Positions 9,977 through 39,382 of a DNA stretch of 55,242 bases are shown here, in pieces (the first letter of the stretch is position 1; every line of letters starts with the position of its first letter). A model generated the notes under the pieces. The model was not told the origin of the DNA. It was given only the letters and a program-made list of their open reading frames with translations, and did not search any database. A program made the translations under genes and the position numbers. The stretch is from Gloeophyllum trabeum ATCC 11539 (Eukaryota > Basidiomycota > Agaricomycetes > Gloeophyllales > Gloeophyllaceae), in assembly GCF_000344685.1 (NCBI RefSeq), contig NW_006920413.1:2414534-2469775 (forward strand). Reading direction: 5' to 3'.

Positions 9977-10097
9977 GAGCAGTTTAGTGATGCCACAGTC
10001 CGGTTCCTGAACCTGGGAGAACCGGTTCGAACCTCGGACTGGACCCAGGTTCTGGTCTGCAGTCCAGCTTTGGGGTGGACCGAACCACTTTTGGTAC

Positions 10098-10576
10098 TTC
10101 GCCCCTACAAAGCATGAACAAACAATCCAAATCAGGCAGGTAAATCATGTGACCTTCCAAAGGCTCCGTCGACTGCTCTATTAGGAAGCCGCCCTGGCCC
10201 TAGCACTAATATATTAATATTACTATTGTGACTTCTCAAGACTGAATGGTGTAATGGATAGTGCGTCAAGTACATTATCCTTGGTGCTACTGAGTTCGAT
10301 TCTGCGCGGGGTACTTTTAATGCTACACAATTATTTTGTAACTCGTATCTGGAGCAGTATTCAATCATTTTCTGTAGTACTTATGCACCCTGTATCACAC
10401 AATTTTCATTCTGAAAATTTTTTTAATTTGCTTCTGAGTGAACAGAACACCAACAGTATGTACTACTTCTAAATGTGGCTGTGCGGCCTTGAGCGTGTGA
10501 CTGCCCGGCGCTGGCGGAGGTCACATGACTCACCTTCCAGATTTAGTGTTGTTTGTTCGTGCTTTGTAGGGGCGAA
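10098..10576. repeat. 28-bp inverted repeat pair inside the hAT left end
   Basis: A 28-mer starting TTCGCCCCTACAAAGCA at 10098-10125 returns in inverse orientation at 10549-10576 with one mismatch, and the similarity weakly continues inward. No target duplication is visible, so it is either a small MITE that has lost its flanks or part of the hAT structure. Confidence 0.55.
10244..10312 (+). repeat. tRNA-Arg-like segment (SINE head or tRNA pseudogene)
   Basis: GGTGTAATGGATAGTGCG resembles the D-arm/A-box of tRNA-Arg, and GAGTTCGATTCTGCGC about 30 nt later resembles the T-arm/B-box. The acceptor stem does not pair, so it is not a working tRNA gene. A tRNA-derived SINE head is the simplest reading. 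Confidence 0.45.
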
Positions 10577-11107
10577 ATAAGGCCAACTGGACCGAACCTG
10601 AAGTGAGGTCCAGGAGCCACAATGCCCGAACCATACCTAAGTATGGTAATTCTGAAGGGTTCAAACCCAAACCTGACCGGACCCAACGCCATTTCAGGTT
10701 CTTTGTGGTTCACGGTGATATGCACTGACACACAACAATCACCAAGGACCAAAAGAAATAAATTTAACACCAGCGGTATGGGTGGAGGTGGTCCGAGACA
10801 ACTGAGGGGTATTTTAATAGTTCGAGGGGGAAGGAGGAGTAAGACGTCGTAGGGTAGTCCATAGGAAGACCTAGAAAAATAAAACAAATACTTTGACGCC
10901 TAAAAACAAATGCTAGCTGATGCTCCGGAGTATTTATCTCCGAAGAGTCGCAATCAAAGTTGCAAGCAACGACACCTGTCATAGGATCGTGCCCACTGTC
11001 AGCTGAACTTGCGACGGATATAAATCCACCTAGAATTTACTAAGTGGAAAGGTCGTCAAGCTCCCCAAGAGAATGCTGGATTTAACGTTGGTCGAGCAGT
11101 TCCCTTG

Positions 11108-11707
11108 TGTTCGAGAGGTAAGATAAGTTTCCAATTAACACAGACCCTGATATTGTGGTGGTAATCTGATAGATACTAAATAGGTAGCTGACTACTAGAG
11201 TCTAGCTGAGAATGAAGGTAGAGAGCTAACACAGGTCACAGGAGTCTAATGGCAGACTTCCAATAACCCAGTCTCATATTCCAAGACAGACTTAAGCTAA
11301 CTGAAGCAGACAGCAGACAGTACTGCAGTCCTTCCCTACACTGAGGTGCTTCAGACAATCAGAGTCCAGACAATTCTTATCCCACAGTAGGGACAAGGTC
11401 TGATTGACTTGACAGGCAAATAGCTTTATTGGGGGATCCCAGATAGATTGATCCTCTCTTTCCTCTCTCTACTGAGCTCCTTATATACCCTACAGTAATT
11501 TGAAATTACAAACAATAGGGTGGGAAGATACTTGGGAGGAGACAATAGTGTGAGAAAGGGGTAACAATAGTGTGAGAGAGTGGTATGAGTCATCCAACTC
11601 CAGCCAATCCCTGAAGCTTTGAGAACATGGGTGACTAAGCCAAAACAATAGGCATGGGAAAGTGGTAAACAATAAGGTGAGAACGATCCTTGGCCAATCA
11701 TGGAACA
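11108..11707 (-). mobile_element. LTR of a retrotransposon (unpaired)
   Basis: On the minus strand the 600-bp segment runs from TGTTCC to GAACA, the short inverted TG..CA ends of LTRs. It contains a TATATAA box at 11487-11481 and an AATAAA signal at 11430-11425, about 55 bp downstream, as in a U3-R-U5 layout. No second LTR lies in the window. The flanking 5-mers (CCTTG and CTTTC) do not match, so it may be one end of a truncated element rather than a clean solo LTR. Confidence 0.55.
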
Positions 11708-11729
11708 CTTTCAGTCCTTATAGAGCATT

Positions 11730-11951
11730 CTACACAGTTCCTCTCCCAATACTTGCCCTCATCCTTTCTCCCATTAACAGAAGGTGCTTGGCGCGCTCGA
11801 AGGATATGTCATAGAGGTCTTCGTTTCCTACCCCCAACCAGTTGTTGAAGTCCGCATCTACCAGACCTTCCAAGACCGACCTGTATGTACAGGTCTCTTC
11901 AGCTTGATGCTGGTAGTAGTGGTACACTTCCAGCCTGGAGGGGGACGACAT
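11730..11951 (-). pseudogene. 73-codon open frame next to the LTR, possible retroelement fragment
   Basis: The frame reads MSSPSRLEVYHYYQHQAEE, then DADFNNWLGVGNEDLYD, and ends just upstream (in minus orientation) of the LTR start at 11707. That is where the end of an internal coding region would lie if this is a 3' LTR. No domain is recognised. Confidence 0.25.
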
Positions 11952-12966
11952 TCAGCGTGTGGCAACAGCGCAGTTTGGCATTCGAACGATAACATTGTCT
12001 GACACCGCGGTGGTAGAAATTGCTAGAGAGACTTGGTTAATTTTATTTCACTATGTAGGACTCACTGGAGATAATTCAATCAACGGCGGAGATAAATCAC
12101 TCGACGAGTCAGGCCTATTGGCAAAGCTAGGATCGGTTATAATTCGCTAAGTTTGACGCTTTCAAACTTCAAGGCTCGCTGAGATCATAACGCTAATTCT
12201 CTGAGATGGTGAAGTGCAAAACTTGTTTTTCTGTATGCTACTTTGTACAATTTATACTACAGGAATGGCTTTGCAACCGTCCGGAGATAAATAACAAATA
12301 AATGCCGCTACCCACAGGATTGCTCAGCACTTGCCGGTGTTATACCATACACTATACGACTCTCTTGCACTCCCACTTGCTCATCCCAGCCCCTAGAGGT
12401 CACCTCGACGCTCCGCCACCTGACCCAAGCAGTCCCATCACTCCGTGTGATGCGCCGGTCACATGCTAATTACCTCCGGCCACTTGCTGACTGATGCTGG
12501 CCTGATGGTGACTCGTATGCATCCGCACCTTCGGTAGCTTGATGGAAACGAGAGGGGGAGTGTGCTGGAGGGTGGGCATGAGGATGACGCCCCTCAATAG
12601 AAGCGTCCGTGGGCCCCGGAGCTAATTCATCTAAAAGTTGCATAGGTTAAGTCACCCCGGAGCTCACGTTTGCGGAGATAAATCGCGGAATGGGTCCGTG
12701 TACGTCTCGGGATGCTAGGAAGTCCGGAGCTAAATAGAAAAATTCTTTTAGAGCCCATAGAAGCCTAGAGGCGTGTGAGCGCTGTGTCGAATAAGCTCCG
12801 GGGGGCTTGTACGATGTGCTGAGTCCGCATTTTCAGGGGTCAGACGATCCTGAGGCTTATCAACGGTCCAGACATTTACCCGAACTGGACCTTGGGTCTG
12901 GTCCCAGGTCCAGAAATTTAGGCCAATAATTGGACCGAGCCGGACCGCAGCATCACTAGAGCAGTT

Positions 12967-30012: not shown

Positions 30013-30020
30013 ACCATTAT
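30013..30020. repeat. Left copy of 8-bp target site duplication ACCATTAT
   Basis: This octamer is identical to 39375-39382 and directly abuts the terminal inverted repeat. Confidence 0.9.
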
Positions 30021-30113
30021 ATGACGGTCCAAATGCACTAAAAAGGAAAATGCACTAATATACGCAATGCACTCAAATATAAACCAAACACGCGCACAGT
30101 TTGCACCTTGCAC
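30021..30113 (+). repeat. Left terminal and subterminal repeats of the transposon
   Basis: After the 19-bp terminal repeat, TGCAC occurs at 30034, 30051, 30068, 30102 and 30109, all in one orientation. Such arrays are usual transposase-binding sites in DNA transposons. Confidence 0.75.
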
Positions 30114-30202
30114 GCATATATTGAACTCATCGCACGCGTATACACTGGTACTGGGATTCATAGCTACTACCACGAACGCTGCCTCCGATGATGGCGAGTA
30201 CC

Positions 30203-31223
30203 CTAGGCGACATTCTCCTGCCCTCCATCCTCGACCAGCTGGATGTCCGCGGCTTTCTTCTTGACAACGTACTGCCCTACAATGTCAGCGATAGTCTCCT
30301 CGAACATCTCCTCATCTCTGGTTAAAGCCTCTCTCTGCTTCACCCAACTGACGTTCAAGTCCTGGCAACCCTGACACATTCCAGGGATCCGCACTGTCTC
30401 CAGCATGTCCAGAATCTGGCGGCCATTCCTGCCAGCATCCGGGTGTAAGAGATGCTTGGCAAGCCCCTGCCACCACTGCGTAGTCCAGGCCTGACGGCAT
30501 TGTTCTGAGGTGAAGCAGGATACGTCTTCAATGTAGGGTGAGGGATAGAAAGCCAGCACAAGTCGGTGTTCAGCAATCTGGGCATGTGTGTTGGCTATGG
30601 CATAGAAAGCGTTGGGTCCGATCAGGTGAGCCATTGGCCTTGTAATCGCGTGGACTGGCATTGACATCAGCTCGCGAAATGCTGGCTCAATCCAGTCATA
30701 GACTTGGTACGTGCAGCCCAGGTGGAAGCGAAGCGCCGGGTTGGAGACAGTAGACTTGTTCAACATCTGAATGGCATAGTTATGCGCATCTGTGATCTCC
30801 CACATGTGTGACAACTTGAGGATGGCAATGAGTTCCTCCTCGCTAGCGTTTTCATTTGACCAGCTGCACCCAGGTAAGCAGAGTTGGCAGGCTTTGTGAT
30901 TCGTCTATTAGCACTCACCCCTTAAACAGGTACCGGAAGATGTGGTCTACTTCCTTCTCATTGATGCAGCTCGGCAGCACCAGGGGTTGGTCATCAGACT
31001 GCCCATCTTGCACCCCATGCGCTGGAGTAGGCAATGAAGCCATGTTCCGGAAGACTTCTGAGCGGTCGGCAAGGAGGCTGAAGTGGACGTTGTAGAGGGT
31101 ACTGTTTTCACCGACCTTTAACTCCCGTCAATTTTCCATTAGATTGAATATATATCCAATGCTCACTTGTATAATTAATGACCCGTCTGGATAGTAGAAG
31201 AGTGGATGGTGAGCCCCTGGCAT
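30203..31223 (-). CDS. BTB/POZ domain protein carried by the transposon
   Basis: Three exons, 31223-31167, 31115-30919 and 30863-30203, encode 304 residues. The BTB fold covers about residues 8-95 (FYYPDGSLIIQ, then NSTLYNVHFSLLADRSEVF, then EVDHIFRYLFKGWS). It is followed by the helical segment typical of agaricomycete BTB proteins (LSHMWEITDAHNYAIQML, then IEPAFRELM) and the C-terminal motif RIPGMCQGCQDLNVSWV with a CxxC. The start (MPGAHHPLFYY) follows the family pattern of a few residues before the first strand. The gene is divergent from the integrase gene, 120 bp away. It could be cargo captured from the host's large BTB family, or a partner in regulating the element; neither is shown by the sequence. 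Confidence 0.85.
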
Positions 31224-31343
31224 GAGTCTGCTCCTGTCAATATTGAGTTGAGAATTGAGAGCGACTGTCGCTCCAACCCGATATGGAAACGCTCAAGTGT
31301 GGCCACTTGGACATCTTTGTTGCAACTTTCATTCCACCACATT
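31224..31343. promoter_or_regulatory. Shared divergent promoter of BTB and integrase genes
   Basis: Only 120 bp separate the two ATGs, so both transcripts must start within or close to this interval, probably overlapping. No clear TATA box is visible. Shared regulation is inferred from the spacing. Confidence 0.5.
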
Positions 31344-33352
31344 ATGGACTCTGCATGCCCTGTCTCTTTTCCTGCTCTTCCTCCTCACCCTGAAGGTGAT
31401 AACTGGTCTGGAAATGTCCTCCAAGCTCACGAGCTCTTATCCGAATCATACACCCATGCTTCACAACTGCTCCGACAAGAAGATGGTGATCCACTTCGCC
31501 TACGGTTACACTCTGAGCGCATCTACAAACGAATGATACCCATCCTGGATGCACTACACCATGAAGTGGCTGATGACCAGTGGGCCACTGGCTGTGCTCA
31601 CGCACTGGCTAAGATAGTGGTGGAGTTGGAAGATGCTGCCTTTGCAGCGCAGGGTGTGTTCGTATCTTGCTGCTATTATTATTTGTACCAGCAGAAAGTC
31701 ATGCCTTATGAGCAGTGAGCAAGCTGAAATACACCGCATTGTACCTGTCACCATTGTCCACTCTGGCTGTCGTGGTAGGCCCCGCAAAGAGATAGATCCT
31801 GCCTGGTTACATGATGCCATGTCCTCCCACCGCAAAATCACGATCAGCAAACTTGCCAGTGTTCTTGGCATGCACCGAAATGCAGTTAGCAAGCAACTCA
31901 AGCTTCATGGGGTAGACCGTAGATTTTCCAACATCTCCGATGGCGATATAGACATGCTGATCAAGCTCTACAAACAACATCGCCCAACCTCTGGCCTTCG
32001 TTATGTCATAGGCTTCCTCAAACGACACGGCCTACGGGTCCAGAAGCGACGTGTCCGAAGCTCTTTACATCGCATTGACGGCCTTGGCCAAGTGCTCCGA
32101 AATCATGCTGCAATTGACCGCCGAGAGTATAAGGTACCACGTCCGAACTACTTGTGGCATATGGATGGTTATCACAAGCTTATACGATGGGGTTTTGTCA
32201 TTCATGGTATGGTGGATGGCTATTGTCGAACCGTAAGCCCAGGTAACAAATATCCTTGGCACTCATCTCATTAATTCTGGTTATAGATTGTGGGGATAGA
32301 AGTCAATACGAATAACCGAGCATCCACAGTGCTAGATTTATTTATGCAAGGTATTGCAAAGTATGGACTACCATCCAGGGTCCGAGGTGATCGTGGCGGA
32401 GAGAATATAGAAGTTGCAGTATGGATGATAAAACACCGGGGACCAAATCGTGCATCATACATGTGGGGCAGGTATGAACATGCTCTTTAGATCCAGCACC
32501 CGTGAACTAATGTACTCCAGTTCTACCCGCAATACCCGTATTGAGCGGCTCTGGGTAGAAGTGGGCTCCCAATTTGCTCGGGGATGGCGGGGATTTTTCA
32601 TGCGACTTGAGCGGCTTCACCAACTTGATCACAGTGATCCTACCCACCTCTGGCTGCTCCACATACTCTTCTTGGACAGCATCCGGGATGACTGCAGGGC
32701 GTTCCAAGAGGAGTGGAACCATCATCCCATCTCAGGGGAGGGTCACGATCAAACACCCCTGGTCCGTAACTGTATAATCACTCTCCACGTCTCTTTGCTT
32801 ACATTGCTCCCAAAGGACATGAGGTTTCTTGGTCAGCTGGAGCATGGAGTCTATGATGATGGGTATGAAGATGTCCATCCCGATGTCTTGAACCGCTATT
32901 ACGGTGCGGACTCTACCCATGAGAGGCTTCATCCTGGCCAGACTGGTGCAGGCCATTCGGACTCTGAAGATGAAGGCGAAGCTCTGGAGGACCTCATTGC
33001 TGCAGACCAGGAACGGCACGTCCGACATGACCCTATCCCAGTTCCAAAGACATCCAGCCCTTTCCCGGCCGACTTGACTGCTGACTTCCTCAAAGCACTG
33101 GATGAATTACTGGCTACAGACATTGTGCCTACCGGTCTAGGTCTACGAAATGACGAGTGGCCTGAAGGGGGTTACCCTGAGGCAGAGGCCATCAGAAGCG
33201 GGAGGAAGTACGTAGACATCGGTCTCCCATTCAATACATGGTGGCCCAGGGCAGTGGTGTGGGGGAAGGCATTGACGCTCTTGTCTCATTTTCAGGCCAT
33301 TTATGAGGAAGCAGCAGGCATATCAGGGTCTGACAGTGGGAGTAGCGAGTAA
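31344..33352 (+). CDS. Integrase-core (DD34E) protein, candidate transposase
   Basis: Five exons, 31344-31655, 31720-32232, 32287-32471, 32521-32761 and 32816-33352, encode 595 residues; the first junction is the least certain. Residues about 110-235 hold an AT-hook-like GCRGRPRKE and helix-turn-helix segments (TISKLASVLGMHRNAVSKQL). The RNase H-like core follows with LWHMDGYHKLIRW (Asp253), RVRGDRGGEN (Asp310) and STRNTRIERLW (Glu345). This gives a D-x56-D-x34-E triad, intact as in retroviral-type and IS integrases. The C-terminal 200 residues are acidic, with LGQLEHGVYDDGYEDVHPD. Related integrase-core proteins are common in basidiomycetes without assigned function. The stop lies 31 bp from the stop of the converging dioxygenase gene. 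Confidence 0.85.
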
Positions 33353-33383
33353 TGCATTAGGTATCCAAGAACATGGAGTAGTG

Positions 33384-35117
33384 CTAGTTTACGGTACTCT
33401 TGAGGTCAGAGAACCTGGGCAATAATGCAATCCCCTCCTTCCAACGCGCCGCATTGGCCTCTTCAGCCACCTTTTTCCCATATTCCCCAGCAAAAGATTT
33501 AGCAGAGCGAAACCCAAAGTCGTGCCACCTGAATAATCCACCTGCGGTAAACATGGTCATGGAAGCCCTCTTCTCACCTGGTTGAACACCGATATTAGAA
33601 TGCTCCAGAATGGCGGAGCAAATAAAGATGGTGGACCCTGGAGGAAACTCGATGACCAGCTTCAATGGCCATATGATAATATGGCCGCTTGTCTTGGGAT
33701 TGTAGTATCCAAGAGCCGTCACAGGACACCATCCACATACATAGTTCAGGTGATCCGTGTGGATAAATGTGCGCACCAAAGGGCCAAAATTAAATGCATA
33801 GCTGGCGAACACAGATTTTTTGAAGAGCCGTTGGAGGTTGGGGTATGCCTCGTATATGTTGTCCATGGTGGAGGAGTAGTATCTAAATAGCTTTGGGGCA
33901 TAAAGATCAAAGGCCTCTGAAGCACAGAGTCAGCTCAACATGAAGGCGATCAGGAAGAAGACTCACGGTTGGCAAATCCCACAATTCTCTGGATATATAC
34001 GTTGTCCAACAATGACCGGACCACCAGGGCATTGATGACACTATTGATTGCAACATTACCAGGAACCTATGTGGCAACAGACGTGAATATCGGTCTCCCG
34101 AAACCGCAAAACACTTACCTTTCTCCCTCCCCCATAAGACACCCCCGTAATTGCCTCAGGGAATTTACCCCGACGATGGACTTTCTTTGAGTCAGGGCAG
34201 TGGAACCTGGCCCCTTCTCTTTCCAGAGCGTCGAATGCACCTTTATGAACTTCTTCCCACCCTTGGCCTCGAGGAGACCCTGCCAGCATAACGAGAATTT
34301 CGCCATCAGATGTTGGGTCTCCAACGGCCTTTGGAGTTCTATAAGACATATTAGTGATTGGCATGCCACATGAGGGGAGTAACTCACATCCCATCCCAGG
34401 GCACATAGGTCATCTCCTGTATCTCTGGGTCGTCCAGCTTATACTCCTTCATCTCAGGTTCGCCAACCTTCAACATTTTACCTTGGTGGCCTGATTTGCC
34501 TCGGTGAAGACTGGCTATAGGCTTGACAGTAGGGACAGGCTGGGTATCGCTCGCACGCTTGAAGGAGATGGACTTTTGTTTCAAGGCGTGGTGTTTCTTG
34601 GCTTTTGTCGCTGCTTGCTTTTCTTCGTAGTGAATCCTGCGATTGGCGGTTTTGAATTTTCGGCGCTGAAAAGCCTTTTTCTCCTTTGGTGTAAAAGGAA
34701 GGGCGTTGGGCCCAGGCTGTGAAGGAAGAGGCGTAGCCGAAGGAATAGGTACGGTGGAAGGAACCGGTGTGGCAGAGGAGAGAGGCGTGGCAGAGGAGAG
34801 AGGCGTGGCAGAGCGAATGCTCGTGGTGGTAGGAATAGCTGTCCAGACTGGGCGTAAGAGTGGGCCTGAATGCCAAAGACAATGAGTTACTCACCGTTGG
34901 TGCCATCAGGCCAGACCAGCTCATCCCTGAGCTCATAGTCGTCCTCATCATAAGCTGCAGCCCCCTCCTCTAAGTCGCGTTCAAAAGCATAGGCCTCGCA
35001 ACGTGATACTGCAGAGTCGACGTTTAGAGCCTGCTTGGGCCTGATGGTGTTGTCCTCAGTCCATGGTGAAAACGCTCGCCCTGAGCGAGTCACCCTACTG
35101 CCCGAGGCCTCAGGCAT
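33384..35117 (-). CDS. 2-oxoglutarate/Fe(II) dioxygenase, probable TET/JBP-like family
   Basis: Five exons, 35117-34895, 34865-34388, 34338-34119, 34066-33967 and 33916-33384, encode 517 residues. The N-terminal 230 residues are disordered, with SATPLS repeats and a Lys/Arg-rich stretch (KEKKAFQRRKFKTANRR). The C-terminal double-stranded beta-helix carries the expected ligands: HTD (His393, Asp395) for iron, His446 in ILEHSN, and Arg457 in EKRASMTMFTAGG for 2-oxoglutarate, with GHIIIWPLKLVIEFPPGST between. This order matches the fungal TET/JBP-like proteins described as expanded in basidiomycetes and associated with transposons. TET/JBP enzymes oxidise 5-methylcytosine or thymine in DNA; activity on DNA is not proven for this protein. 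The start is the first ATG and gives the in-phase splice to exon 2. Confidence 0.78.
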
Positions 35118-35269
35118 TCTCCCATCAGGTAGTAGTGCTTTGAGCTATGATATGTCAATGAAGATCTTGGTTGGCCAACACTCAACGGCTCACCTCTCGG
35201 AAAACCCGACACGCGTAGGCAATGGCTGTAACATCGGATTATAAGCACAGGATGGTCACATCAGCACCA

Positions 35270-36690
35270 ATGAGGCACCATGGGCCGCAAACCACGCTCC
35301 AAGCAACCCCGACCGCAACACGCACGGCCTGCCAACACACGAGGGTCCGCAATATTACCCAGGCTACGCATGCACGTTGGGGGCAACAGAGACGTGGAAT
35401 CGCCGGGGAATCCTCGTAAGTGCAAGAAGAATGTACACTCACGATGCATCCTTCCGACGCACGAGGGTGCTCGAAGGCGCGAATACGGGACCCGAATCGA
35501 GTGCAGCCAAGATACGCGTCGAGGGTACAGGGAATCCCAGAGGACCTTACGGGTGTCCGACAATGAAGATGTGGGCTGTGGAGAGATTGACAGAGAGCCA
35601 CCAGATATTATAAGTAAGCAACAGGAGGCCCGTGCGCTGGCGTCTGCAGCTACGGGGAACACGCTGGCGGGACAGTAAGCCGGTATCGAGACGCGACAAG
35701 CGCCACGGACGCGAACGCGAACGTGTGACGCTTGAGCGGTTTGCGGACTTAGCGGATTTGTGCAAGCTCAAGCAGCGTATCGACATACGGCTATGACTCG
35801 CAACCTAACTCGCCGCCATTTGCATTCACTCTCCAGATAGGCAGCATGCGCGCCGACACGTACGTGTCATCGCGGCGCGGTAGCAGCATGATCAGAAGTC
35901 TGCATCTGCCGCGTTTACCAACATTAACGACGCGGCGTCAACGTTGGCGGCCTCACGCTAGCTTTGGCTCAGGATGGCTTGGGCTATGGGTGGGGAGGCT
36001 CGGTGCGTCTTGCATTACACAGTTAACAGATTGACATCTGACATCTCATGGTTACTTCTAGATATGCTGAGCTACTCAGCAACACGTATGGGCACCGTCG
36101 TCTTGGTCCCGCGGCCCCGTGTTCTACCTCGTCGCGCGCGCCCACCTCTCCCGCGAACGCGGCCCCTTCCTCACCGCGCGCGCAGCGTGTGCGCAATGCG
36201 AACACGCGAGGACGTGCGACTGCAGGTGGAGCGGACCCGTGTTCTACCTCGACGCGCGCGCCCACCTCTCCCGCGAACGCGGCCCCTTCGCCACCGTGCG
36301 CGCATACTTCTTCGTGTGTGCGCAACACAAACTCGAGTGCTCGGGCGTAATGTACGCTCAGGACACGTTGGCGGACTACATTTGTACGTCTCCGCTCTCC
36401 CTCCTCATCAGATTACTTCTGTTTCTCATTTCTACATTCACTTCCTAGCTTCCTCAATGACGTTATGCATATCACACAGCCAGGCTATACTCCCACTACT
36501 GGTCAGTGTTTTCCACAGGGTTTTCCCTTTCTCCGTATTCACTTTAGATCGCATGATCATGCAGACAACACAATGGAGCCCCACGCGATACAATGTGCGA
36601 GATGGGGCACCGCGCGACAGTCGTGGTGCTGCACCTGCGTACGTTCCTCCTCCAGGTGTGGGCAATGCGGATGACCGCCGAAGACGCTGA
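35270..36690 (+). CDS. GC-rich gene-like segment, exon structure unresolved
   Basis: Several plus-strand stretches read like protein: HEGPQYYPGYACTLGATETW before a GTAAGT donor near 35415; NPRGPYGCPTMKMW near 35540; the duplicated block FYLDARAHLSRERGPFATVR followed by VCAQHKLECSG at about 36120-36350, ending at a GTACGT donor at 36382; and TTQWSPTRYNVRDGAPRDSR to a stop at 36688-36690. I could not join them in one phase with confidence, so the gene may be broken or have more introns than I can place. The segment is much richer in CG than the flanking transposon genes. The Cys/His spacing hints at a small zinc-binding module. No family is recognised. Confidence 0.35.
36117..36340 (+). repeat. 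In-frame tandem duplication, 120-bp period
   Basis: GTGTTCTACCTCG at 36119 and 36239 starts two units spaced exactly 120 bp (40 codons). About 60 bp are nearly identical, then the units diverge. Both encode FYL.ARAHLSRERGPF followed by a Cys-containing stretch (CAQCEH in unit 1, CAQHKLEC in unit 2). Confidence 0.8.
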
Positions 36691-37173
36691 CCATGTTCCC
36701 TCGGGAATGCGCGGCGGGTAAAGTTGAGATGCGCAGTTGCCGGTCGCTCCCCGCCATTCCGATGCTCTCGTGTCCGGCCTGAGACGGTGCCACGGCAGAG
36801 ATGGCGGAGGCTGCTTGGAGTTCAACCTGGTGGACGGTATCTATGCATGAATGAATGGGAAGGGGTGTCGGAATGAGGGAATGGCCCGCCGATGTTGGTC
36901 AAGATTGAAACCTATGGAAATACTAGAGCTTCGTGCCCATGCCTACTATTCCTCTGAGCCGTACAGCAGAATGAGAAAGCCGAGGATGGCTGCCGATGAG
37001 CACACGGCTAGCAATATGGATGACAGGTCCTAAATCTTCTGCCTTCAAGATCTGATCTGGCTAAGCCACTGCCTGTGGCGGCATCCGCCCCCTGCTCTCT
37101 CCTCAAATCTCAGGAAGCTTCTCCCAAATCGCTCTGGCTCCCTCCGCCGTACTGTCTTCACTGGTGCTCTAGG

Positions 37174-39011
37174 ATGCCCTACTGCAATGGCTTAGGCAAT
37201 GATAGCCAGCCATGTCGTTGCCAGCGTTTTGTTCTGGAGGAATCTTCTTCTTCAGACACTGACGTGGGCTGGTCCGACCACAGCACCGGGAACGACAAGA
37301 AGAAGCGAAAGAAGAAGAAAAAGAAGAAGGTATGCGAATGCGGCCACAATGCCAGCCTCCACGCTGCAGAGGATGGATCAAGTGCAAGAGCTCCTGCTAA
37401 GTCTGGTCGTGACTCCTTAATGTACTCTATTGTCGACACGTATTCCAATGGCTTCAAGCGACTCCAGATGCCGGAGAAGACCAGTGAAGAGAATGCAAGG
37501 AAGGAGGCTGTCGCAGGGCTAAGGGCTGTCCAGGATGATGAGGATGACGGACGAGCATTGGTGAAGGGACGGGGAGGCAAAACACGCTTCAAGGTGATGT
37601 ATCCGCGCCTCTCCCAGACGAATAACCTCTGAGTGCTGGTTCTAAATTAGCCTTCCATCTCCAAGTCCAAGTCCAAGCCGGAGTTCAAGACTAAGAAGAC
37701 CTCAGCCATGAAGGGTGTCACTGTCGGTGGTGTTGTCATGGTTCCGTACGGGTTGAAGGTAGGCATCTACCTTTTGTACCTTCGCTCTTAAAATATTCAC
37801 CAAGCTACTCTACAACAGTCCAATGGGAAGCTTAAACGTGATCGGACCCCTACTCCCAATGACATTGAGGGCGGCAAGCATGGCGAGAAAGGTTATAGGG
37901 AATCTAGGTTGTTCACTGAGGGCGTATTCCAGTTCTACAAGGAGTGGAGCATGCAAGCAATCGACAACTGGCTGCACGATCTTTTCCCTGAGGTCTTTGC
38001 TTACATGGATGCCCGCTATGGTTCCCCTGAGGAAGGCTGCTACCACTGGGCGCTTTTGACCAGGAACAGGCAGCGCCTGATTGCCGTTTGTAAGTCGGAG
38101 GTGACTGGCACCGATTTGCATAAAGTCAGGGGTGTTGGGAGGAGTCCGGAGGATATGAAATTGTACTTCAGTGCGTAGCTGTACGCATCCTTAGCTGCTA
38201 CTGCTCAACATTTTTTAGCCACCAAGAAACCCCTCCCCAAACAGGTATACGAGAACTGGGAACTGGCCACAGAGCAAGCCCGCCAGGGCCATACTGAGCC
38301 AATGTCACCCACTGAAGACCTAGGCGATCCCACTACAGATGAAGAGCTACTTGGTGTCTCGGATGATGGACAGACCGGTCTTGATCCCACACCTCCCCCC
38401 CGACCCCAGCCTAGGCCAGCCTACAAGGGCAAGAGCAGGGTCATCTCTGGACGAGGAGGCAAACTCTCTGTACTCACGCCCAGTGAGCCTTCAGGCTCTT
38501 CTGATGAGGGAGATGACGGAGGGGAGGATCATGGAAACGGCGAGGTGGCAGGTCCTGGTCATCAGTCAGTACAGCGGTATGGCAAGGGGAAGGAACTGGC
38601 TACGACTGAGAGGGTGAAACCTGCTGGCTATAAACGGCTAACGCTGGATGATAGTGACTCTGACATTGAGTGGGTCAAGGGGCCAGCCAAGAAGGCAAAG
38701 GACGTACTTGGGTCTCCGCAAGGTGAGCTGTGGAAGTTAGCCGATGAGGAAATGCCAGCCTAATATTTCTCTCAACAGTGAAGACTTCTGTGGCCGACCC
38801 ACTGATGCCTGCTCCAGGTCTGTTTGACAACGGTTGGGGAGATTTCTCGTTTGGTATGCAAGCCGGACCTTCTGGCATTGCGGGAGGGTTTGTTGACAAT
38901 GCGTCTGGGAGTGGAGGGAGTGGTACAACCTTTGGATCTGCTCGAGGTCTGGAAGCAGATGGTACGGGTTTCCAATCGCCGGGCAAGCCCAAGCGAAGCC
39001 CATGGGCGTGA
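37174..39011 (+). CDS. Basidiomycete Cys/His- and Lys-rich protein of unknown function, transposon-borne
   Basis: Five exons, 37174-37593, 37651-37758, 37819-38170, 38219-38722 and 38779-39011, give 538 residues. The N-terminus MPYCNGLGNDSQPCRCQRFV plus a later CECGHNASLH supplies a possible zinc site (Cys4, Cys14, Cys16, Cys54, Cys56, His58, His63), separated by an acidic loop and a Lys/Arg run at about 42-52 that may be a nuclear localisation signal. The central conserved domain (about 210-300) includes WSMQAIDNWLHDLFPEVFAY and YHWALLTRNRQRLIAV. The C-terminal 230 residues are acidic and disordered. I recall similar proteins (MPYCSGLG start) as a multi-copy agaricomycete family without assigned function. 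The stop lies 345 bp before the right terminal repeat. Confidence 0.75.
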
Positions 39012-39300
39012 CCGCATTGTTTCCTATGGTATCTTTTATGTAAAGTACCAATGCCTGAAGCAAGTATTCGTGTTGTATGGGAGTGTAGGCTGCTTGCAAA
39101 TGCCGGTGGGCTGGTGCGTTCACTAGACTTCGGTGATTGTACTACCTTCGGTACGAACATGACCATGGCCACGACCATGGCCATGCTTGGCTACTTGTTG
39201 TGAATATGTAGTGGAACTTGTTTTTATACATGGATTACTCTGGCTTCAAAATATATATATATGGCACGTCTCATAGGTATGCTGTGTTCTGGCATTATGT

Positions 39301-39374
39301 GTGCAAAAATGCAGTGATATATATATGGAGCTCTATATACGTGCATGGCAATAAAAGTGCAAATGAACCGTCAT
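39301..39374 (-). repeat. Right terminal and subterminal repeats of the transposon
   Basis: GTGCA (the complement of the left-end TGCAC words) occurs at 39301, 39341 and 39357, the last inside the 19-bp terminal repeat at 39356-39374. Orientation is mirrored relative to the left end, as expected for a DNA transposon. Confidence 0.72.
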
Positions 39375-39382
39375 ACCATTAT
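39375..39382. repeat. Right copy of 8-bp target site duplication ACCATTAT
   Basis: This octamer is identical to 30013-30020 and lies directly outside the right terminal repeat. Confidence 0.9.

What the first reader, a model, noticed from the sequence alone, without database searches (positions are those of the whole stretch)
30013..39382. A bounded 9.35 kb DNA transposon of unrecognised type carrying a TET/JBP-like dioxygenase
Seen: a perfect 8-bp duplication (ACCATTAT) flanks 19-bp imperfect terminal inverted repeats (ATGACGGT..), with inward TGCAC words at both ends. Between them lie genes for a BTB protein, a DD34E integrase-core protein, a 2OG-Fe(II) dioxygenase, a GC-rich gene-like segment and a Cys/His-rich protein. 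No transposase of hAT, KDZ, Mutator, CACTA or Helitron type was recognised. Known: fungal TET/JBP genes have been linked to KDZ transposons. Inferred: this would be a different element class, driven by the integrase-core protein, with the same enzyme type as cargo.
Basis: partly seen in the sequence, partly recalled or inferred. Interest (0 to 1): 0.93.

Follow-up and report, generated by a model that had tools for sequence, protein, structure and literature searches.

The report
Mushroom transposon carrying a TET enzyme
A 9.4-kb jumping gene in a wood-rotting mushroom carries, besides its own integrase-type transposase, a TET-like enzyme that may strip silencing methyl marks from DNA; relatives in the same genome, and a second, unrelated kind of transposon there, carry the same enzyme family.

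Summary
The bounded element is real: its ends recur on C8 (different flank), C6 and C32/C15. The target duplication reads better as 6 bp (CCATTA) with TA..TA termini; nested copies match over 6 bp but not 8. With a DD34E rva_4 integrase whose nearest bacterial relatives are IS3/IS481, and no HHCC motif, it fits IS3EU/GingerRoot, so it is not an unrecognised class. TET-carrying IS3EU elements are published from rusts and a truffle (PMC12730594); the parts I read report none in mushrooms. The host is very probably Gloeophyllum trabeum. The dioxygenase family has a TET/JBP fold (model of a homolog; best matches CcTet, NgTET1, TET2), with a TET2-like Asn where CcTet has Gly331, and HxD instead of the PE type's HxE. 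In this genome 8 of 10 loci of the family lie within 12 kb of rva_4 integrases (5) or MULE transposases (3), none near the 6 KDZ loci found; one TET+MULE element is bounded by a 9-bp duplication and TIRs. A TET+MULE is not among the paper's 11 lineages. Gene inversion and unequal divergence hint that the TET cassette was swapped in one element, but a tree test does not prove it. The anti-silencing function is inferred.

The parts
30014..30019 (.). left 6-bp target duplication CCATTA
39376..39381 (.). right 6-bp target duplication CCATTA
30020..30039 (+). left terminal inverted repeat TATGACGGTCCAAATGCACT
39356..39375 (-). right terminal inverted repeat (reverse complement TATGACGGTTCATTTGCACT), 17 of 20 matches
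30203..31095 (-). BTB-like gene (weak BTB match), first exons uncertain
   Evidence: counterpart in C6 and C32 elements by tblastx
31344..33352 (+). rva_4 integrase-type transposase, DD34E, several introns
33384..35117 (-). TET/JBP-like 2OG-Fe(II) dioxygenase, several introns
36106..36379 (.). pieces similar (83-97%) to a host gene at C12:1301k, part of them twice
36378..36570 (.). piece 87% similar to a G-protein alpha subunit gene region at C12:790k
37174..39011 (+). Cys/His-rich protein gene, no Pfam match, homologs in Gloeophyllales

Best explanation
An IS3EU/GingerRoot-type DNA transposon of 9,356 bp (30020-39375) with TA..TA termini and a 6-bp target duplication, in a brown-rot mushroom (very probably Gloeophyllum trabeum ATCC 11539). 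Its rva_4 DD34E transposase would bind the TATGACGG..TGCAC ends and move the unit, which also carries a BTB-like protein, a TET/JBP dioxygenase and a Cys/His-rich protein. Shown by sequence: the bounded structure, recurrence of the ends at other sites, recurrence of the gene set, the TET/JBP fold of the enzyme family. Inferred: that the transposase does the moving by staggered 6-bp cuts, and that the enzyme oxidises 5-methylcytosine on the element's DNA so that it escapes silencing.
Against: The window's 8-mer and the C6 copy (7 of 8) also fit 8 bp; only two pairs discriminate, and they join ends on two contigs. No IS3EU reference transposase was available. The window TET protein has no Pfam hit and the model is of a 45% identical homolog. 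In the 38-row set one row has N for the iron-binding D. 4 of 9 rva_4 loci have no TET nearby. No expression, methylation or transposition data.
Confidence: 0.8

Rival explanations
1. A KDZ (Zisupton-like) element with 8-bp duplications that lost its KDZ transposase; the integrase is cargo.
For: 8-bp perfect duplication; TET genes are known on KDZ elements and Zisupton makes 8-bp TSDs (PMC12730594).
Against: 6-bp duplications in the two discriminating pairs; the 6 KDZ loci found are not within 12 kb of any of the 10 TET loci; no KDZ match in the five gene models; the transposase exon compared is better conserved among the copies than the TET core.
Confidence: 0.03
2. A new superfamily near to, but distinct from, IS3EU/GingerRoot: a separate lineage of rva_4-driven elements in mushrooms.
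For: Short imperfect TIR (17/20), unlike the >30-bp TIRs of rust TET+ IS3EU; window begins TATGA, not TAYGG; BTB-like and Cys/His genes, no alpha-kinase match.
Against: TA..TA, 6-bp TSD, no HHCC and an IS3-like transposase are stated IS3EU features; one end type of the related C32/C15 copies starts TATGG.
Confidence: 0.13
3. The dioxygenase is passive cargo, without an anti-silencing role, like the captured host gene pieces.
For: The element carries captured host DNA; 4 of 9 rva_4 loci lack a TET gene, and the C7 TET copies are fragments.
Against: Open frames with catalytic residues kept in diverged copies; the same family lies beside MULE transposases at three further loci.
Confidence: 0.25

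Closest known systems
TET+ IS3EU transposons of Pucciniales and Tuber indicum (Kojima 2025, PMC12730594)
   Same: IS3EU-type transposase, TA..TA-type ends and 6-bp TSD (rust elements), TET/JBP gene as cargo
   Different: mushroom host (Gloeophyllales); BTB-like and Cys/His-rich genes, no alpha-kinase match; short TIR; TET keeps HxD, whereas the PE type (Tuber) has HxE
IS3EU/GingerRoot superfamily (PMC10045372)
   Same: TA..TA, 6-bp TSD, IS3/IS481-like DDE transposase without HHCC
   Different: carries three further genes; position in the transposase tree not tested
TET+ Kyakuja elements of Agaricomycetes and CcTet (PMC12730594, PMC11040006)
   Same: TET/JBP fold, mushroom hosts, transposon-borne
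   Different: other transposase; Kyakuja makes 7-bp TSDs and has no TIRs; Asn and Cys here where CcTet has Gly331 and Asp337; the family profile does not find CcTet by sequence
Styx, element sharing coding sequences with IS3EU, Zymoseptoria (PMC10853768, passages)
   Same: fungal element with an integrase gene and 6-bp TSD, about 7.9 kb
   Different: 36-bp TIR; no TET gene in the passages seen
MuDR/MULE elements
   Same: the C12 relative of the TET gene lies in a unit with a MULE transposase, TIR and 9-bp duplication
   Different: a MULE carrying TET is not among the 11 lineages of PMC12730594

Membership tests
IS3EU/GingerRoot | TA..TA termini | tested here: met
   T before ATG in all 5 end hits with 0-1 mismatch and in 18 of all 24 hits of a pattern that does not contain that base
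IS3EU/GingerRoot | 6-bp target site duplication | tested here: met
   CCATTA in the window; GTCATT and TACATG in C32/C15, exact as 6 and not as 8; C6 copy 5 of 6
IS3EU/GingerRoot | DDE transposase related to IS3/IS481, without HHCC | tested here: met
   NCBIfam IS3 5.5e-12, IS481 6.3e-11, both under the curated cut-offs for bacterial members; no HHCC match, DD34E
IS3EU/GingerRoot | transposase clusters with reference IS3EU proteins | not testable with these tools
TET+ IS3EU of rusts | TIR over 30 bp, TAYGG..CCRTA | tested here: not met
   17 of 20 bases, TATGA start in the window
TET+ IS3EU of rusts | alpha-kinase gene | tested here: not met
   no kinase family in the gene models scanned
KDZ | KDZ transposase in the element | tested here: not met
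   no KDZ hit in the gene models; genome search with PF18758 finds 6 loci, none in the element
TET/JBP dioxygenases | TET/JBP fold | tested here: met
   model of homolog P0002, 45% identical to the window protein
TET/JBP dioxygenases | HxD..H iron ligands and C-terminal Arg | tested here: met
   A1, 27 rows with the window: H 27, D 27, H 27, R 26; A2, 38 rows: 38, 37, 38, 36
TET/JBP dioxygenases | Pfam Tet_JBP match | tested here: not met
   window protein no hit; 14 of 27 family rows match PF12851 at E<=1, best 1.2e-6
TET/JBP dioxygenases | oxidation of 5mC | not testable with these tools
   no assay
AG-type TET (CcTet) | Gly or Ser at 331 and Asp at 337 | tested here: not met
   Asn and Cys at these distances from the first His in 27 of 27 (A1) and 38 of 38 rows (A2); CcTet residues; equivalence rests on spacing, not on an alignment with CcTet
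PE-type TET | HxE | tested here: not met
   HxD in 27 of 27 (A1) and 37 of 38 rows (A2, the other HxN)
PU-type TET | sequence cluster of rust TETs | not testable with these tools
   no PU sequence available
MULE (C12 relative) | MULE transposase, TIRs, 8-11 bp TSD | tested here: met
   PF10551 8.3e-7, 29.8 bits, cut-off 27.6; TIR 32/40 and duplication CCCTGGCCG, 0 such hits in 30 shuffles; TIR core at only these two places at up to 3 mismatches

The most novel reading that the evidence does not exclude
In Gloeophyllum a further type of transposon-borne TET, with a TET2-like Asn in the pocket, has become a shared anti-silencing cassette of two unrelated transposon superfamilies in one genome: IS3EU and, as a carrier not in the published list, MULE. 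The cassette has moved between them at least once, and one IS3EU element (C32) had its TET gene replaced or inverted.
Probability: 0.4. Interest if true: 0.72.

Novelty: new variant of a known kind. Interest (0 to 1): 0.58.

Why it matters
If true it extends TET-carrying IS3EU transposons to mushrooms and adds MULE as a carrier. It offers one sequenced, culturable wood-rot fungus in which the same enzyme family rides two transposon superfamilies beside TET-free relatives, so the anti-silencing hypothesis becomes directly testable: are carriers less methylated, or richer in oxidised 5mC, than non-carriers? The Asn in the pocket predicts a preference for 5mC over 6mA, unlike CcTet, which is a simple biochemical test.

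Tried and rejected
8-bp duplication as the true target length: set aside, since the GTCATT and TACATG pairs match over 6 bp only. KDZ origin: set aside. Pfam Tet_JBP as a census of the genome: one sub-cut-off hit at C26 only; replaced by a protein search. PDB search by sequence with the TET protein gave one unrelated weak hit, with its profile none. Ends at C7:1795k: none found. MULE termini at C4:484k and C15:20k: none convincing. Ends TATGACGTT on C1, C5, C7 and C13: same end type in different flanks, not resolved. Names of TET and integrase hits in other mushrooms (120 listed of 139 and 120 of 231), compared by eye, showed no neighbouring locus tags, so co-location outside this genome is not shown. 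One search's BTB query was in a wrong frame and is not used; BTB identities come from tblastx.

A claim dropped on checking: the AU test that rejected the four IS3EU TET copies as one clade (p 0.0015, run after the tree had been seen) depended on one row of unknown carrier (C1). With that row put among the four, or left out, one clade is not rejected (p 0.13 and 0.12).
Full report
WHAT IS THERE. A scan of the 55-kb window for TA..TA ends with a 6-bp duplication and at least 13/17 TIR matches returns this pair only; 20 mononucleotide shuffles gave 0.1 hits each and never more than 13/17, against 14/17 here. In the whole genome (G000, 35.5 Mb, window at C4:2414534-2469775) the 18-bp end pattern with up to two mismatches has 24 hits, its reversed control 1. 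A looser 19-bp pattern with three mismatches does not discriminate (361 against 284).

THE ENDS ARE MOBILE. C8 holds a left end 99% identical over 776 bp, starting at the TIR in a different flank, then cut off by other DNA near the contig end. C6:873515-883280 (9,766 bp) has TATGACGGTCCGTTTGCAC at both ends, with flanks AAAGCC/ATAGCC. C32 and C15 share 1,000 bp at 99.9% and 293 bp at 100%, which I read as two nearly identical copies, one nested in the other.

TARGET LENGTH. At the C32 and C15 ends the 6-mers GTCATT and TACATG pair exactly if the element is taken as TA..TA, while the 8-mers do not (AGTCATTT/AGTCATTA; GTACATGT/ATACATGG). The base before ATG is T in all 5 end hits with 0-1 mismatch and in 18 of all 24 hits of the pattern, which does not contain that base. 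The pairing of ends across two contigs is inferred from these matches; the C6 copy (7/8 or 5/6) does not discriminate.

HOST. A protein of Gloeophyllum trabeum ATCC 11539, with a longest contig of 10,541 bases, matches the translation of C32, also 10,541 bases, at 99%, 90% and 89% in three pieces. The host is very probably this brown-rot fungus, order Gloeophyllales.

GENES. Left to right: BTB-like gene (-), transposase (+), TET/JBP gene (-), a segment with captured DNA, Cys/His-rich gene (+). The transposase hits PF24764 at 2e-64 and PF00665 at 7.2e-9 and, among bacterial families, IS3 (5.5e-12) and IS481 (6.3e-11), both below those models' cut-offs. Catalytic residues D254, D311, E346 give DD34E, and no HHCC motif is present. 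By tblastx the set recurs: all four genes in C6:873k in the same order and orientation; all four in C32 with the TET gene inverted; three in the interrupted C6:605k element, whose right part could not be read. Identity to the window: transposase exon 81% (C6:873k), 79% (C32), 73% (C6:605k); TET core 66%, 47%, 63%.

CLASS. PMC10045372 (parts 1-3 of 5 read) gives TA..TA termini, usually 6-bp TSDs and no HHCC motif for IS3EU/GingerRoot. These are met here. Not met are traits of the rust TET+ IS3EU elements: TIRs over 30 bp and an alpha-kinase gene. No reference transposase was available, so I call it IS3EU-type.

WIDER IN THE GENOME. I group the hits into 10 loci of this TET family (23 matches; two C7 fragments counted as one), 9 rva_4 loci (22 matches), 4 MULE loci of which 3 pass the cut-off and 6 KDZ loci (11 matches); the tool calls such counts lower bounds. 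Within 12 kb, 5 of 10 TET loci have an rva_4 gene, 3 of 10 a MULE, 0 of 10 a KDZ, and 2 of 10 (C1, C19) none of these; 0.09 would be expected at random, and 0 of 20,000 random placements reached 8. Against a fixed partnership: 4 of 9 rva_4 loci have no TET nearby, the fourth MULE hit has none, and the C7 TET copies are fragments. All three MULE loci over the cut-off have a TET gene beside the transposase on the opposite strand. At C12 the unit is bounded: 943072-953857, 9-bp duplication CCCTGGCCG, TIR 32/40 with a core of 23/24; the core occurs at only these two places in the genome at up to 3 mismatches, and 30 shuffles gave 0 such pairs. Ends at C4 and C15 were not found.

HAS THE CASSETTE MOVED? 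In a tree of 37 TET rows (9 from this genome, 28 of the 120 listed homologs) the genome's copies form one group (100/99); the three MULE copies group (99/98); the window, C6:879k and C6:617k copies group (93/84); the C32 copy groups with C1 and C7 (100/98) and nearer the MULE copies (96/85). Among labelled rows one change between IS3EU and MULE carriers is enough. Without four long or partial rows the fork joining C32 to the MULE copies falls to 87/78, and a single clade of IS3EU copies is not rejected once C1, whose carrier is unknown, is put with them or left out (p 0.13 and 0.12). So one move of the gene between the two superfamilies (or two captures from a near common source) is the simplest reading; direction is not shown. 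That the C32 TET gene was replaced rests only on its inversion and its 47% identity beside a 79% identical transposase exon; local inversion with faster change is an alternative.

CAPTURED HOST DNA. Window 36106-36379 matches a gene region at C12:1301k (83-97% in pieces, partly twice), and 36378-36570 matches C12:790k (87%), whose preceding frame is a G-protein alpha subunit (PF00503 2.4e-19). The two sources are about 0.5 Mb apart; the fragments abut in the element.

MECHANISM. Shown: structure and recurrence. From general knowledge of DDE transposases: excision and integration at the ends with staggered cuts. Inferred: the TET enzyme oxidises 5mC on element copies and relieves silencing. The host has hits to the cytosine-C5 methyltransferase family (4 matches at 3 loci), so there may be something to erase.

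WHAT IS KNOWN. PMC12730594 (outline, parts 1-5 of 7 and passages read) reports TET+ transposons of 11 lineages; in Agaricomycotina Kyakuja, Zisupton, EnSpm, Plavaka and Helitron2, and IS3EU only in rusts and Tuber indicum. MuDR occurs only in its introduction and Gloeophyllum not at all. Its supplement could not be opened and Iyer et al. 2014 is not held. Paper searches on TET with IS3EU, MULE or MuDR and on Gloeophyllum trabeum transposons brought up no other such report; for those lists I saw titles and abstract starts only. Of PMC10853768, PMC11040006 and PMC8889193 I saw passages.

VERDICT. A real, well-bounded TET-carrying IS3EU-type transposon: a new variant of a published kind. The bounded TET+MULE element in the same genome is the newest part.

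Noticed in passing
window 9985-12958: hAT-like non-autonomous element candidate: 8-bp duplication GAGCAGTT, inverted ends TAGTGATGCCACAGTCC / TAGTGATGCTGCGGTCC; longest open frame inside 118 aa. The hAT label is recalled from the end sequence.
   Followed up: partly
L050/L037/L051 (C12:943072-953857): Bounded 10.8-kb MULE element carrying the same TET family.
   Followed up: yes
L052 (C4:482.8-487.1k) and L054 (C15:17.8-23.2k): Two more units of MULE transposase and TET gene; ends not found.
   Followed up: partly
window 36106-36570: Abutting fragments of two C12 host gene regions, one beside a G-protein alpha subunit frame, inside the transposon.
   Followed up: yes
L046 (C7:1792.4-1795.5k): rva_4 integrase with a different exon pattern next to two tandem TET-like fragments; no ends found.
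   Followed up: partly
L008, L010, L015, L019 (C1, C5, C7, C13): Another end type, TATGACGTTCCGTTTGCAC, in four different flanks; probably a related element family.
   Followed up: partly
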